Shown: piece by piece, positions 28,368 through 33,622 of the stretch
How the letters are laid out: each line of letters opens with the position of its first letter
How positions within the stretch are numbered: the first letter of the stretch is position 1
From: Pseudovirgaria hyperparasitica
Lineage: Eukaryota; Ascomycota; Dothideomycetes; Acrospermales; Acrospermaceae
Direction: 5' to 3'
Assembly (NCBI RefSeq): GCF_010093815.1
Contig: NW_022985555.1
Location: 618,186-682,185, forward strand
Length of the DNA: 64,000 nucleotides
Position numbers and translations under genes: made by a program
Notes under the pieces: generated by a model
What the model was told of the DNA's origin: nothing
Seen by the model: the letters and a program-made list of their open reading frames with translations, nothing else
Database searches by the model: none

Positions 28368-29904
28368 ATGTGTGGTCGTTATGCTTTCTTCCTTGTAAGT
28401 GTTTTTCTTTGCTTCTCCCTTCTCGAGCTTCGTCGCGCTGTCATGACGTAATGTACGCAGTGCTCTACATCGATCGACAATTAGCAAGAAGCAATTCATT
28501 TCAGCTCAGCTCATATTGGATGGTTTGAGTAGTAATATGCTGACGCTGAAATCTGCAAGCGGCCCTCTGAGGTTCGAGATCAATTGGAAAATGCGCAAAT
28601 GCCTTCCCAGGAGACTCCTGCAGACGACGAAGTAAGGCAAACGTACAACTTCGCTCCTGGGTACTTTGGACTGGTATATCGTGCAGATGTGCCATACACT
28701 GGCGCTGAGTCACAGAACCACAGCAGCAGCAAGCATGATGGAGGCGACAGCGACGGTGACAACATTAAAGTTGAGAATATAGAGGACAACGAGTCCCAGG
28801 ATGTTTCAGAAGCGACCTACAAGCTTCAAGCTATGAAATGGGGTGCGTATCTTGTATCTAGCATTGCTAAAATAGTGAACTGACATTCGATAGGACTTGT
28901 TCCGTTCTTTACCAAGCGAAATCCGGACTATGGGTCTGTGATGAAGACTATCAATTGTAGGGACGATTCGCTGCTAGACAATCGAGGTATCTGGACTGTA
29001 CCTAAGATGAGAAAACGATGTGTCGTGGTATTCTCGGGCTTCTATGAATGGCTCAAGAAGGATGGCGGTAAGCACAAAGTACCGCATTTCATCAAGCGTA
29101 AAGATGGTCAGCTCATGTGTGTTGCTGGGCTATGGGACTGTGTCCAGTATGAAGGTGAGCGTATATATGGTGGCCGCGTGGAAATTTACTGACTCTGACA
29201 CAGGGTCTGACGAAAAGCATTACACATACACCATCATCACAACTGACAGTAATAAGCAATTGAACTTTCTTCATGATCGGATGCCCGTGGTCTTCGATAA
29301 CGGATCAGATGATCTGTTCAAATGGCTGGATCCAAAGCAGACAACATGGACGAAAGACCTGCAATCTCTCTTGAAGCCATACAATGGAGAACTTGAATGT
29401 TACCCGGTCAGCCAAGAGGTCGGCAAAGTTGGCAATAACTCTTCAAAGTTCATTGTTCCTGTCGACAGTGCTGAAAACAAGAGCAATATTGCAAACTTCT
29501 TCGACAACCAGAAGAAGCTTGCACAACTTCCATCAAGCACCTCAAACTCCAAAGTGAAGAAAGATTCAGACGAGCCACGCGGGACCGTTGAGGACACAAC
29601 AAGTACAGAAGACAATGCGCCTCTACCTGTTCCTCAAGACAATGCTGGAACGGCAAATTCAAAGCGTACCCACGAAGAAGCCGAAATCGACGTAAATACA
29701 GGGGAGCCCAAACAAAAGTCCCTGAGGCTATCAGACCAACATTCTCTCAAGAGCAGATCACCAGCAAAATCTTCTCTGAAAGGAGATCACAAAACCAGAA
29801 GCTCGACGACAAATCAGAAAGAGTCACCAGCCACAGCAAAGAACCACAAAGCGAAGCCAGGTACTACTGGTAGTAAGAAGATCACAAGCTTCTTCGGAAA
29901 GTGA
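28368..29904 (+). CDS. HMCES: SRAP-domain abasic-site protein (HMCES/YedK family)
   Basis: The family forms a thiazolidine crosslink with abasic sites in single-stranded DNA and protects them at replication forks. Exons 28368-28394, 28560-28842, 28894-29154 and 29204-29904 encode 423 residues. Cys2 (MCGRYA) is the crosslinking residue. The first intron falls right after the first nine codons. Other family signatures are FAPGY, MKWGLVPFF (across intron 2), GFYEWLKK with the catalytic Glu, and LHDRMPV with the active-site His. The C-terminal ~170 residues are Ser/Lys-rich and end in KKITSFFGK, a PCNA-binding (PIP)-like motif at the very end as in animal HMCES. A second PIP-like motif, SNIANFF, lies just after the SRAP domain. 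The next gene downstream carries an AlkB domain. Confidence 0.92.
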
Positions 29905-30547: not shown

Positions 30548-33500
30548 ATGGCGACCTCGTTCTTAGATCTGCTCACGCAGAACCAGCCGAGTCTTCAGAC
30601 ACGACAGGCCTTACTGGTCCTTGGCCTCCAAAATGACTTCATCTCACCGAGCGGGAGACTACCTGTTGACACCAGCTCCGGATTTGTTCAGCGAATCCAA
30701 GAAATGGTTCCAATATTCCGAGAGAATGCTGGCGACATTGTCTGGATATCGACATGCTACCACGAAGATCGTATTGTGAACGATCCTGTGGGTGAAGGCG
30801 ATGTCATCCTCTTAGACATGCTGGACTCTGCTGGAGAGGAGTCAGACGACAGTGCCGATGAGGTCAAGGACGCCTCTGCTGCTGCATCCAAAGCACGTGC
30901 TTCTCGACACAAGAGCCGTGCCTTAGATTTGCTCAAGAAGATGTCATCACGCAGGCACTCTATACGAGAACCGTCTTCGGTGCCAGTAGAGGAAGACGAG
31001 ACATTCTTGTCAAACACTTCTGCTCACCCGGCGTGTTGCATACCTAACACTGATGGGGCAAAATTTAATCCGGAAGTCGAGGCCTGTATTGATTCTTCTG
31101 CAGATCTCACCGTTGTGGCCACGAACTACTCCGCGTTCAATTCAACTGCTCTCTTGATCAATCTTCGTGCCAAGCTTATCACAGAGCTCTACATATGCGG
31201 CTGTATTACGAATATCTCTGTTTACGCCACCGCACTGGATGCTGCCCGGCACGGTATTGCTATAAATATAGTCCATGACTGTCTTGGTTATAGGAAGGTC
31301 TTGCGTCACGAGGAAGCATTAAAGCAAATGACAGAAGTCATGGGAGCCAATCTCATATCAAGTGAAGAGATCACCACAGTTTTGACAGCTCCAATCGAAA
31401 TCGAGAGTTCGAGAAGCAAGAAAAAGAAGACCCAAAAATCGAAAGAAGATACAGATCTAAACGAACTTGTAGGAAATATGAGCCTCAATCAACACCCTTT
31501 CTCGCCACCAGAAAACAGTTTTCGGAAGAAGGCATCACTGGCTGCTTTGAGACAAGCTGCTACTAGACTTGCAACAGCGTCAAGCAAGCAAGAGCCTATG
31601 CCAAACGCTAGTGCCAACGCTGCGAATACGACAGTAGCTGCTCATTCTCATGAGAGGGCTAAGAGCTCGAGCACTAATCTTTCGACACCCTCAGGTGGAG
31701 GGGATGAGCCGCCATCAGGCATGACGAAGTCAAAAATCCGTATGCGGTCGAGGAAGAAGCCACTCGATGAGAAGAAGGACACTATGACTGACCCAGCCGC
31801 TAGTAGTGATCTGAGAGTTGGTAAAGAATCTTCCAGGCCAAGACCAAGTTCAGCCGTTGAGTCATCCAGCAAAAAGGCAAGCACCAGCATAACTTCACCG
31901 GAAAAGGAGAAAGAAACGTTGAGTCAGAAAGCTTCCAGAGTGTTCCCGTCTCTGAAACTTGCCAAGTCCCAAGTACAACTAGCAACTGAATCCAAGACAG
32001 CAAGATCGCCAGTCACACCAACTCGCCCAAAATCATTTGCACTTGCACAGGGATCACAGTCTGTGAAAGAAGAACAAGACAAAGCGCGTCCGCATAGTCT
32101 ATCAGCTATGACTAGCACCAAGAAACCTCAGTCTTTAGCAACGTTCCCAACCCTCGGACCAAACGATCGCATTGGTGAGGGAGACTCGTGCATCATTTAT
32201 CACTTCTTTCCTGAAAATTTCAAACGTACTGCTCGATCTGAGGTTGCTATTTCTGATGAAATATTCTCGCTACTGCATAATGAAGTCAAATGGCAGAAGA
32301 TGTTTCATGCCCAAGGCGAAGTGCCGAGGCTTGTATGTGCACAAGGAGATTTTGGGAAAGACGGAAGTATGCCCATCTATCGACATCCATCCGATACGGC
32401 ATTGCCTCTACTGCACTTTTCGCCGTCCGTGCAGTTGATAAAAGAGCAGGTTCAAAAGATCGTAAAGCATCCAGTTAATCACGTGTTGATCCAGTTGTAC
32501 CGTTCAGGGACCGACTGCATCTCCGAACACTCGGACAAAACGTTGGACATTGTCCGAGGCTCGAGCATAGTCAACGTCAGTTTTGGAGCGCAACGAACGA
32601 TGCGTCTCAGGACGAAAAGATCAGCCAAATTGGACAAAAGTACTGTTGAAGCTGCGAGGACTACGCAACGAATTCCTATGCCTCACAACTCGATGTTTGT
32701 TCTTGGGGAAGAGTCAAACCAACGCTGGCTGCATGGCATACTACCAGACAAGCGCTTGGATGAGGAGCGTAGTGCCGCAGAAAAGGCATATTGTGGGATG
32801 CGTATATCATTGACATTCAGACACATTGGCACATTCATAGATGGAAGATCGAGCGTCATTTGGGGACAGGGAGCTACTACGAAGATTCGCGAAGAAGCTA
32901 TCGAAGTTATCAACAACGACGACAAGAAAACACAAGAGATCATCCGGGCATTTGGCACGGAGAATCAGAGTACGAATTTTGACTGGAAAGCAGTATATGG
33001 AGGAGGGTTCGACGTGCTACACTTCCGAAAACCACCACGCGACGAACCAATATTTTTCACGTCACACAATTCCATTGCGAACTCTCAGGTCGCAGTATGT
33101 CTATCTGAGCTCGATATAGCGCACACAACTTACAGCCCTCCACCACCATTCGACAAAGCCTCGACAACGACTGTACAAATTGGGTATCGTGACTCGGATA
33201 CGCGTCATGCAGAGATATTTGGTGCGGTTCCCATCTTACTATACCTGGACCGCTACCACCAGTTTGACCGCAGCGAGCAAGGCAAGCCAGCCACAGCACT
33301 AGCCTATCAAGTCTTGTTCAAGGTCGAAAGCTTACACCAAAGATGGACGAATTTGAAAGACAAAGAAGAAACACCTGACAGTATCCTTGAGATGCTGGAT
33401 GAGCTTGATGATATCAATGACATGCATGGTCAAGACTACATTGCCGGCAACCGTCTGAGTATTGCAGATTGCGCAATGTGGCCGATGCTAGATACAATAA

Positions 33501-33622
33501 TAGAAAACTGGGATAGTTGGAGCACGGAGAAGTTTCCTAGACTTTCGGCGTATTATACGAGGATTTGGACACGAAAGAAGAGCTTCGGGAAGCTGCGTAA
33601 AACCCTCCCAAGACATGCTTGA
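30548..33622 (+). CDS. Isochorismatase-like / AlkB dioxygenase / GST fusion
   Basis: A single uninterrupted 1024-codon frame with three enzyme folds. Residues ~15-285 are an isochorismatase-like cysteine-hydrolase fold: LVLGLQNDF with Asp30, YSAFNST, and the GCITNISV strand. The usual nucleophilic Cys is Ser224, and no Lys sits at its usual place before YSAF, so this domain is probably not a working hydrolase. A Ser/Lys-rich linker of ~250 residues follows. Residues ~545-765 are an AlkB-type Fe(II)/2-oxoglutarate dioxygenase: HSD (His661, Asp663), distal His729, and Arg752/Arg758 spaced six apart in MRISLTFR. This set is intact and predicts demethylation of alkylated nucleic acid. Residues ~795-1024 resemble a GST: a thioredoxin-like half (PIFFTSHNSIANSQ to FGAVPILLYL) and an all-helical half with NRLSIADCAMW. 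The gene lies 640 bp after HMCES on the same strand. Confidence 0.85.
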   Translation: MATSFLDLLTQNQPSLQTRQALLVLGLQNDFISPSGRLPVDTSSGFVQRIQEMVPIFRENAGDIVWISTCYHEDRIVNDPVGEGDVILLDMLDSAGEESDDSADEVKDASAAASKARASRHKSRALDLLKKMSSRRHSIREPSSVPVEEDETFLSNTSAHPACCIPNTDGAKFNPEVEACIDSSADLTVVATNYSAFNSTALLINLRAKLITELYICGCITNISVYATALDAARHGIAINIVHDCLGYRKVLRHEEALKQMTEVMGANLISSEEITTVLTAPIEIESSRSKKKKTQKSKEDTDLNELVGNMSLNQHPFSPPENSFRKKASLAALRQAATRLATASSKQEPMPNASANAANTTVAAHSHERAKSSSTNLSTPSGGGDEPPSGMTKSKIRMRSRKKPLDEKKDTMTDPAASSDLRVGKESSRPRPSSAVESSSKKASTSITSPEKEKETLSQKASRVFPSLKLAKSQVQLATESKTARSPVTPTRPKSFALAQGSQSVKEEQDKARPHSLSAMTSTKKPQSLATFPTLGPNDRIGEGDSCIIYHFFPENFKRTARSEVAISDEIFSLLHNEVKWQKMFHAQGEVPRLVCAQGDFGKDGSMPIYRHPSDTALPLLHFSPSVQLIKEQVQKIVKHPVNHVLIQLYRSGTDCISEHSDKTLDIVRGSSIVNVSFGAQRTMRLRTKRSAKLDKSTVEAARTTQRIPMPHNSMFVLGEESNQRWLHGILPDKRLDEERSAAEKAYCGMRISLTFRHIGTFIDGRSSVIWGQGATTKIREEAIEVINNDDKKTQEIIRAFGTENQSTNFDWKAVYGGGFDVLHFRKPPRDEPIFFTSHNSIANSQVAVCLSELDIAHTTYSPPPPFDKASTTTVQIGYRDSDTRHAEIFGAVPILLYLDRYHQFDRSEQGKPATALAYQVLFKVESLHQRWTNLKDKEETPDSILEMLDELDDINDMHGQDYIAGNRLSIADCAMWPMLDTIIENWDSWSTEKFPRLSAYYTRIWTRKKSFGKLRKTLPRHA

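What the first reader, a model, noticed from the sequence alone, without database searches (positions are those of the whole stretch)
30548..33622. Three-enzyme fusion: isochorismatase-like fold + AlkB dioxygenase + GST in one uninterrupted frame
One 1024-codon exon joins a cysteine-hydrolase fold, an AlkB domain with intact iron and 2-oxoglutarate residues (His661, Asp663, His729, Arg752, Arg758) and a complete GST-like domain. AlkB repairs alkylated nucleic acid and GST handles electrophiles with glutathione, so one chain could couple damage reversal with detoxification of the alkylating agent or of the formaldehyde it releases. I know of no characterised protein with this order. The coupling idea is inference.
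Basis: partly seen in the sequence, partly recalled or inferred. Interest (0 to 1): 0.8.

Follow-up and report, generated by a model that had tools for sequence, protein, structure and literature searches.

The report
Fungal DNA-repair dioxygenase with two relic-enzyme domains
This apparently fungal gene encodes one long protein with a probably working AlkB-type DNA/RNA repair enzyme set between two domains that look like a hydrolase and a glutathione transferase but appear to have lost key catalytic residues, so it is most likely a repair enzyme with accessory modules and not three enzymes in one.

Summary
Window 30548-33622 (+) is one 1024-codon frame with an isochorismatase-like fold, an AlkB (2OG-Fe) domain and a GST-like C-terminus, all above Pfam cut-offs. 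The "three-enzyme" reading does not hold. Only AlkB keeps its catalytic residues; its best solved relatives are human ALKBH2, then ALKBH3, and it keeps ALKBH2's finger phenylalanine. In the N-terminal domain the nicotinamidase cysteine is Ser224 and the lysine is missing. The thioredoxin-like half of the C-terminus matches only PF24470, "Isochorismatase, thioredoxin-like"; by eye it lacks the cis-proline and Glu-Ser glutathione motifs. PF24470's name suggests Pfam already knows the pairing. Fungal ALKBH clusters near ALKBH2/3 and a 933-aa Fusarium ALKBH2 are published. Most likely: an ALKBH2/3-type demethylase with a pseudo-hydrolase and a GST-like module as scaffolds or sensors. Coupled detoxification is unsupported. 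No fungal genomes were available, so conservation of the order, and of the residue losses, was not tested; both structure models had low confidence.

The parts
30548..33622 (+). Single-exon ORF, 1024 aa: pseudo-isochorismatase, linker, AlkB, GST-like
30608..31369 (+). Isochorismatase-fold domain (residues 21-274), with about 74 extra residues within 74-152; Asp30 kept, Cys nucleophile is Ser224, catalytic Lys absent
   Evidence: Pfam PF00857 1.9e-24; phmmer 1ilw 1.6e-15 and alignments; residue mapping
31388..32182 (+). Low-complexity basic Ser/Lys-rich linker (residues about 281-545), one NLS-like KKKK at 291-294
   Evidence: composition and motif scan; no Pfam family above cut-off in 31415-32164
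32252..32821 (+). AlkB / 2OG-Fe(II) dioxygenase domain (residues 569-758): His661, Asp663, His729, Arg752, Arg758; Phe586 at ALKBH2 Phe102, Arg594 at Arg110, Tyr611 at Tyr122
   Evidence: Pfam PF13532 8.5e-29; ALKBH2 8.6e-15; residue mapping
32822..33043 (+). Spacer between AlkB and thioredoxin-like domain (residues about 759-832), no Pfam match
   Evidence: residues 761-832 tested, 0 families at E<=10
33044..33262 (+). Thioredoxin-like domain PF24470 (residues 833-905); no standard GST_N match
33371..33580 (+). GST_C-like domain (residues 942-1011)
   Evidence: Pfam GST_C_3, GST_C, GST_C_2; phmmer best to insect GST E6 and relatives, then alpha-class GSTs

Best explanation
The gene encodes a fungal ALKBH2/ALKBH3-type 2-oxoglutarate/Fe(II) dioxygenase. 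The AlkB domain oxidatively removes small alkyl lesions (1-methyladenine, 3-methylcytosine type) from nucleic acid, probably double-stranded DNA in the nucleus, releasing formaldehyde. This step is inferred from intact iron and 2-oxoglutarate residues and from ALKBH2's finger phenylalanine, arginine and tyrosine equivalents. The N-terminal isochorismatase-fold domain has lost the cysteine and lysine of the cysteine-hydrolase triad and is most likely a pseudo-enzyme serving as an oligomerisation or ligand-sensing module. The C-terminal thioredoxin-like plus GST_C pair is most likely a GST-derived dimerisation or protein-binding module and not a glutathione transferase. The Ser/Lys-rich linker tethers the parts and may carry the nuclear signal. 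Residues and domains are shown by sequence; substrate, localisation and the roles of the flanking domains are inferred.
For: One frame with coding-like codon usage throughout and no intron candidate of the pattern searched. PF13532 8.5e-29; of 17 solved sequences matched at E<=1, 12 are ALKBH2 (best 58 bits), 4 ALKBH3 (best 47 bits) and one an unrelated ester cyclase at 0.39; 53 of 159 aligned residues identical to ALKBH2, with Phe102, Arg110, Tyr122, His171, Asp173 and His236 equivalents kept. N-domain: Ser224 aligns with a Cys in 3 of 3 nicotinamidase-type structures mapped, and no Lys/Arg lies between 173 and 206. Trx-like half: no GST_N family reported, no proline between 868 and 894. Published fungal ALKBHs are placed near ALKBH2/3 (PMC3265494, section 16 read; PMC10826363, section 6 read).
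Against: No biochemical or RNA data. No fungal orthologue was available, so I cannot say whether the Cys-to-Ser and Lys losses are shared by the family or peculiar to this species. ALKBH2's Val101, Gly103 and Lys104 are Met585, His587 and Ala588 here, so the DNA-binding finger is only partly kept. The GST motif statements are by-eye alignments; the two structure models failed (mean pLDDT 44.4 and 37.6) and the fold search with the GST part gave no match at E<=0.001, its top matches not being GSTs. For Fusarium, where the 933-aa ALKBH2 may be the orthologue, the paper says that the m6A factors were deleted one by one and that the knock-outs grew and made perithecia normally; the ALKBH2 mutant is not named on its own and MMS is not mentioned, so no repair phenotype is known.
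Confidence: 0.62

Rival explanations
1. One reading: three working enzymes in one chain that couple alkylation repair with detoxification of the alkylating agent or of formaldehyde through glutathione.
For: All three folds are present in one frame; AlkB chemistry makes formaldehyde (general knowledge).
Against: Cys-to-Ser224 and lysine loss in the N-domain; no GST_N match and, by eye, no cis-Pro or Glu-Ser motif in the Trx-like half.
Confidence: 0.08
2. The AlkB domain acts mainly as an eraser of regular marks (RNA m1A/m3C/m6A, or DNA 6mA) and not as a damage-repair enzyme, and the flanking modules bind partners of that pathway.
For: ALKBH3-like similarity (47 bits); the Fusarium paper lists its ALKBHs as putative m6A erasers and reports ALKBH2 induction during ascospore formation; an AlkB-family 6mA demethylase, Dmt1 of Mucor lusitanicus, is reported in a review (PMC13297926, passages).
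Against: ALKBH2, a DNA-repair enzyme, scores higher than ALKBH3 and its finger Phe is kept; the Fusarium paper puts its ALKBH2-4 with DNA-repair ALKBHs and calls ALKBH1 and ALKBH5 its most probable m6A erasers.
Confidence: 0.2
3. The long frame is an artefact: two or three genes or transcripts that happen to share a frame.
For: No RNA data; 22 in-frame ATGs counting the start, including Met585 inside the AlkB domain.
Against: Stop-free by chance about 8e-23; the frame scores positive in 24 of 24 windows across both linkers; start context A at -3 and G at +4.
Confidence: 0.04

Closest known systems
Human ALKBH2 / ALKBH3 (AlkB family, group II of PMC3265494)
   Same: Catalytic HxD...H and two C-terminal Arg; Phe102, Arg110 and Tyr122 equivalents of ALKBH2; best solved-structure matches
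   Different: The solved human chains matched are 202-250 aa constructs of the dioxygenase alone; here 1024 aa with two extra folds; no APIM or PIP motif found by regular expression
Fusarium graminearum ALKBH2 FGRRES_09872 (933 aa; PMC10826363 Table 1)
   Same: Long fungal ALKBH, PF13532, placed with human ALKBH3 and Arabidopsis ALKBH2; length fits a three-domain protein (inference)
   Different: Sequence and other domains could not be read here, so orthology is inferred only
Fungal ALKBH11, ALKBH12, ALKBH13 (and ALKBH16, in fungi only Pezizomycotina) clusters of PMC3265494
   Same: Fungal or partly fungal clusters grouped with ALKBH2/ALKBH3
   Different: Membership not testable: member sequences are in supplements that I could not open; the section read does not describe extra domains
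Nicotinamidase/isochorismatase-type cysteine hydrolases (1ilw/1im5, 5zn8, 3o90)
   Same: Fold by sequence; Asp equivalent; conserved stretch around the nucleophile
   Different: Nucleophile Ser224 instead of Cys, no catalytic Lys, about 74 extra residues; like the 3o94 chain, which shows Ser at that place
Cytosolic GSTs (insect GST E6, mammalian alpha class)
   Same: GST_C domain with the G-(Q/N)-D-Y-x-x-G-N-x-L-x-x-A-D stretch
   Different: N-terminal half is PF24470 and not GST_N; glutathione-site motifs not seen

Membership tests
AlkB (ALKBH2/3-type) dioxygenase | 2OG-FeII_Oxy_2 domain above curated cut-off | tested here: met
   101.6 bits against cut-off 31.2
AlkB (ALKBH2/3-type) dioxygenase | Iron triad HxD...H and two C-terminal Arg | tested here: met
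   His661, Asp663, His729, Arg752, Arg758; the two Arg lie beyond the printed alignment and rest on the motif (recalled)
AlkB (ALKBH2/3-type) dioxygenase | Closest to ALKBH2/3 among AlkB subfamilies | tested here: met
   solved sequences only: ALKBH2 then ALKBH3, no other AlkB-family chain at E<=1; no tree was made
AlkB (ALKBH2/3-type) dioxygenase | ALKBH2 finger hairpin Val101-Phe102-Gly103-Lys104 | tested here: inconclusive
   Phe kept (Phe586); Val, Gly, Lys replaced by Met, His, Ala
AlkB (ALKBH2/3-type) dioxygenase | Demethylase activity on nucleic acid | not testable with these tools
   needs assay
Isochorismatase-like cysteine hydrolase | PF00857 fold | tested here: met
   87.2 bits against cut-off 27
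Isochorismatase-like cysteine hydrolase | Catalytic Asp-Lys-Cys triad (recalled) | tested here: not met
   Asp30 kept; Cys is Ser224; no Lys/Arg 173-206
Isochorismatase-like cysteine hydrolase | Nicotinamidase metal ligands Asp, His, His (recalled; 1im5 Asp52, His54, His71) | tested here: not met
   read by hand from the alignment: Cys70, His72, Cys163
Glutathione transferase | GST_C domain | tested here: met
   GST_C_3 3.3e-8, GST_C 1.8e-7, GST_C_2 1.6e-6
Glutathione transferase | Standard GST_N domain | tested here: not met
   only PF24470 matched; no GST_N family reported with the limit at E 10
Glutathione transferase | cis-Pro and Glu-Ser glutathione-site motif (recalled) | tested here: inconclusive
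   no Pro 868-894; Gly892-Ala893 where Glu-Ser is expected, by eye; no structural model good enough
Fungal ALKBH11-13/16 | Clusters with these groups | not testable with these tools
   supplementary FASTA files not readable here

The most novel reading that the evidence does not exclude
The N-terminal domain is a natural counterpart of the Cys-to-Ser form seen in nicotinamidase 3o94: it binds nicotinamide or a related NAD-turnover metabolite (or, through Cys70/His72/Cys163, a metal) without turning it over, and together with the GST-like domain gates AlkB repair according to NAD or thiol status. A fungus would thus have a repair dioxygenase with built-in metabolic sensors.
Probability: 0.08. 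Interest if true: 0.75.

Novelty: new member of a known kind. Interest (0 to 1): 0.38.

Why it matters
Fungal AlkB homologues are little characterised: the 2023 Fusarium paper says there had been no information on them, and the 2026 review passages that I saw name one worked-out AlkB-family case, Mucor Dmt1, a 6mA demethylase. A fungal ALKBH2/3-type protein framed by two degenerate metabolic-enzyme folds makes a clear, cheap question: do the pseudo-enzyme domains regulate, localise or dimerise the repair enzyme? It also warns against reading fused domains as fused activities.

Tried and rejected
Own genome: none is held, and a family search without a centre genome was not possible. Relatives by short conserved peptides: 1 viral and 17 genome-contig stretches matched a pattern, none a relative; a GST-motif scan of genome contigs matched 127 stretches, none confirmed at E<=1e-3. 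tblastn: 49 plasmid records; all 20 rows shown match the AlkB region only (three of them reach up to about 60 residues into the linker), 29 rows not shown. 3 phage records: two over the AlkB region, one over residues 193-270 of the isochorismatase domain in an unannotated record. No place in either collection covers 80% of the query. So no fusion was seen in the rows shown, and no fungal comparison was possible. PHROGs gave three weak matches, one of them an alkylated-DNA-repair family at 4.2e-4.

Structures: single-sequence AlphaFold2 of the GST part (mean pLDDT 44.4) and of the N-domain (37.6) are too poor; the PDB search with the first gave no match at E<=0.001 and no GST among the 50 rows shown.

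Considered and rejected: secreted isochorismatase effector, as the N-terminus shows no hydrophobic leader by eye, the domain is fused to AlkB and the lysine is absent; split genes; PCNA tether through APIM or PIP box in this protein (no regex match). Bacterial promoter and tRNA scans say nothing here.

Papers: ten searches. AlkB + isochorismatase + GST + fusion returned no paper; AlkB + isochorismatase + fungi returned one bacterial genome paper, listing seen only; the search with Pfam accessions listed 17, of which I saw passages of two (PMC5094085, PMC2409186), with no such fusion. Others seen: PMC13297926 and PMC3475032 passages, PMC8966179 abstract and outline, PMC6094484 one passage, PMC3265494 passages and section 16, PMC10826363 passages and sections 6, 7, 13. 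The searches cover only the held open library.
Full report
Observation. The frame 30548-33622 on the + strand is real: ATG to TGA, 1024 residues, no internal stop. The first in-frame ATG after the upstream stop is at 30548, with A at -3 and G at +4. A stop-free run of 1024 codons at this base composition has a probability of about 8e-23. Using codon counts from nine other long ORFs of the window, which I chose by eye, the frame scores positive in 24 of 24 windows of 80 codons (codons 1-1000) and is the best of six frames in 19 of 24; the five exceptions are codons 1-80, 121-200, 361-440, 401-480 and 641-720. No intron candidate of the one pattern searched was found inside. RNA evidence for one transcript is missing. 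That the window is fungal is inference from its genes; no eukaryote collection was at hand.

Domains. Pfam finds Isochorismatase at 21-274 (1.9e-24), 2OG-FeII_Oxy_2 at 569-758 (8.5e-29), Thiored_Isochorism PF24470 at 833-905 (6.3e-10) and three overlapping GST_C models within 938-1011 (3.3e-8 to 1.6e-6), all above curated cut-offs. NCBIfam gave six matches at E<=1, all below their cut-offs: five hydrolases of the isochorismatase type and one glutathione-dependent disulfide-bond oxidoreductase. Between the domains lie a basic Ser/Lys-rich linker (281-545, S+T 25%, K+R 17%, hydrophobics and Cys 15%) with one KKKK signal at 291, and a spacer (759-832) without a family (761-832 tested).

AlkB domain. 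Among solved structures human ALKBH2 is first (8.6e-15, 58 bits) and ALKBH3 second (3.3e-11, 47 bits); the only other match at E<=1 is an unrelated ester cyclase at 0.39. On the printed alignment 53 of 159 aligned residues are identical. The iron ligands match His171, Asp173 and His236 of ALKBH2; Phe586 matches the finger Phe102, Arg594 Arg110 and Tyr611 Tyr122; Val101, Gly103 and Lys104 are replaced (the meaning of these ALKBH2 residues is recalled, and the numbering offset of 55 rests on the recalled construct start and fits His171/Asp173/His236). Arg752 and Arg758 form an R-x5-R stretch as in the AlkB family (motif recalled). An active ALKBH2/3-type demethylase is therefore the best reading of this part.

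N-terminal domain. Its nearest solved relative is the nicotinamidase-type protein 1ilw/1im5 (1.6e-15). In 3 of 3 nicotinamidase-type chains mapped, a cysteine aligns with Ser224; Lys103 of 5zn8 aligns with Ala191 and Lys94 of 1ilw with Ser184 (that these are the catalytic residues is recalled; in 3o90 the lysine lies outside the printed stretch), and there is no Lys or Arg at all between 173 and 206. Asp30 is kept. The chain 3o94, which in the printed stretches differs from 3o90 only by Ser for Cys at that place, scores slightly above it (36.5 and 34.2 bits); that 3o94 is an inactive substrate-trapping mutant is recalled. About 74 extra residues separate the two halves of the fold (1ilw 55 and 61 align with 73 and 153); residues 97-152 are highly charged (K+R 20%, D+E 23%). 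The nicotinamidase metal ligands read Cys70, His72 and Cys163 in the same alignment. This is a pseudo-hydrolase by the usual criteria. True isochorismatases also lack the cysteine but keep the lysine (recalled), so that escape is not open either.

C-terminal domain. The GST_C half is clear. The thioredoxin-like half matches only PF24470, whose name ties it to isochorismatase proteins; no GST_N family was reported with the limit at E 10. By eye, Gly892-Ala893 stand where GSTs have Glu-Ser, and there is no proline between 868 and 894 for the cis-Pro. A glutathione site in its standard form is unlikely. The single-sequence model of this part (mean pLDDT 44.4) shows a strand-helix-strand order but is too weak to use, and its fold search found nothing at E<=0.001 and no GST among the 50 rows shown. 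The N-domain model was worse (37.6).

Known or new. PF24470 is itself a sign that Pfam's curators have met this thioredoxin-like domain in isochorismatase proteins; I saw the model name only, not its member list. PMC3265494 (passages and section 16 read) reports ALKBH11, ALKBH12 and ALKBH13 as almost entirely fungal types in the group of ALKBH2 and ALKBH3, and ALKBH16 in Pezizomycotina and a plant. PMC10826363 (passages and sections 6, 7, 13 read) lists five Fusarium graminearum ALKBHs; ALKBH2 (FGRRES_09872) has 933 residues, is placed with human ALKBH3 and Arabidopsis ALKBH2 and rises during ascospore formation. The paper says the listed factors were deleted individually and that the knock-outs grew and formed perithecia normally, without naming the ALKBH2 mutant on its own. 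PMC6094484 (one passage) calls the same gene similar to DNA repair dioxygenase AlkB. That FGRRES_09872 is the orthologue of the window gene is my inference from length and position in the tree. I found no paper in the held library that describes the three-domain order (most listed papers seen as listings only), and most subscription papers are not in it.

Mechanism. Shown by sequence: one frame, three folds, one intact catalytic centre. Inferred: oxidative demethylation of nucleic acid by the AlkB centre; nuclear location by the basic linker; non-catalytic roles for the flanking folds. Of these the pseudo-enzyme reading for the N-domain is the firmest, the GST one less so.

Surroundings. The upstream gene on the same strand, 28368 to 29904, is an SRAP/HMCES-like protein (SRAP 2.3e-22 on its 3' part, 0.01 and below cut-off on a 5' piece) that opens with MCGRYAF; no single frame covers it, so it must have introns, which I did not resolve. 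By family, both this gene and the AlkB gene concern damaged nucleic acid; 643 bases lie between them. Whether this pairing is conserved could not be tested.

Noticed in passing
window 28368-29904 (+): SRAP/HMCES-like gene (Pfam SRAP 2.3e-22 on its 3' part; opens MCGRYAF; ends KKITSFFGK, which resembles a PIP box) directly upstream of the AlkB gene on the same strand; two DNA-damage-type genes side by side.
   Followed up: partly
window 30767-31003 (+): About 74 extra, largely charged residues inside the isochorismatase fold, next to the place of the nicotinamidase metal site, where the ligands read Cys70, His72, Cys163: possibly a different metal site.
   Followed up: no
window 32822-33043 (+): Spacer of about 74 residues between AlkB and the thioredoxin-like domain has ordinary composition (766-832 measured) but no Pfam match at E<=10 (761-832 tested); possibly a fungal-specific AlkB extension.
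   Followed up: partly
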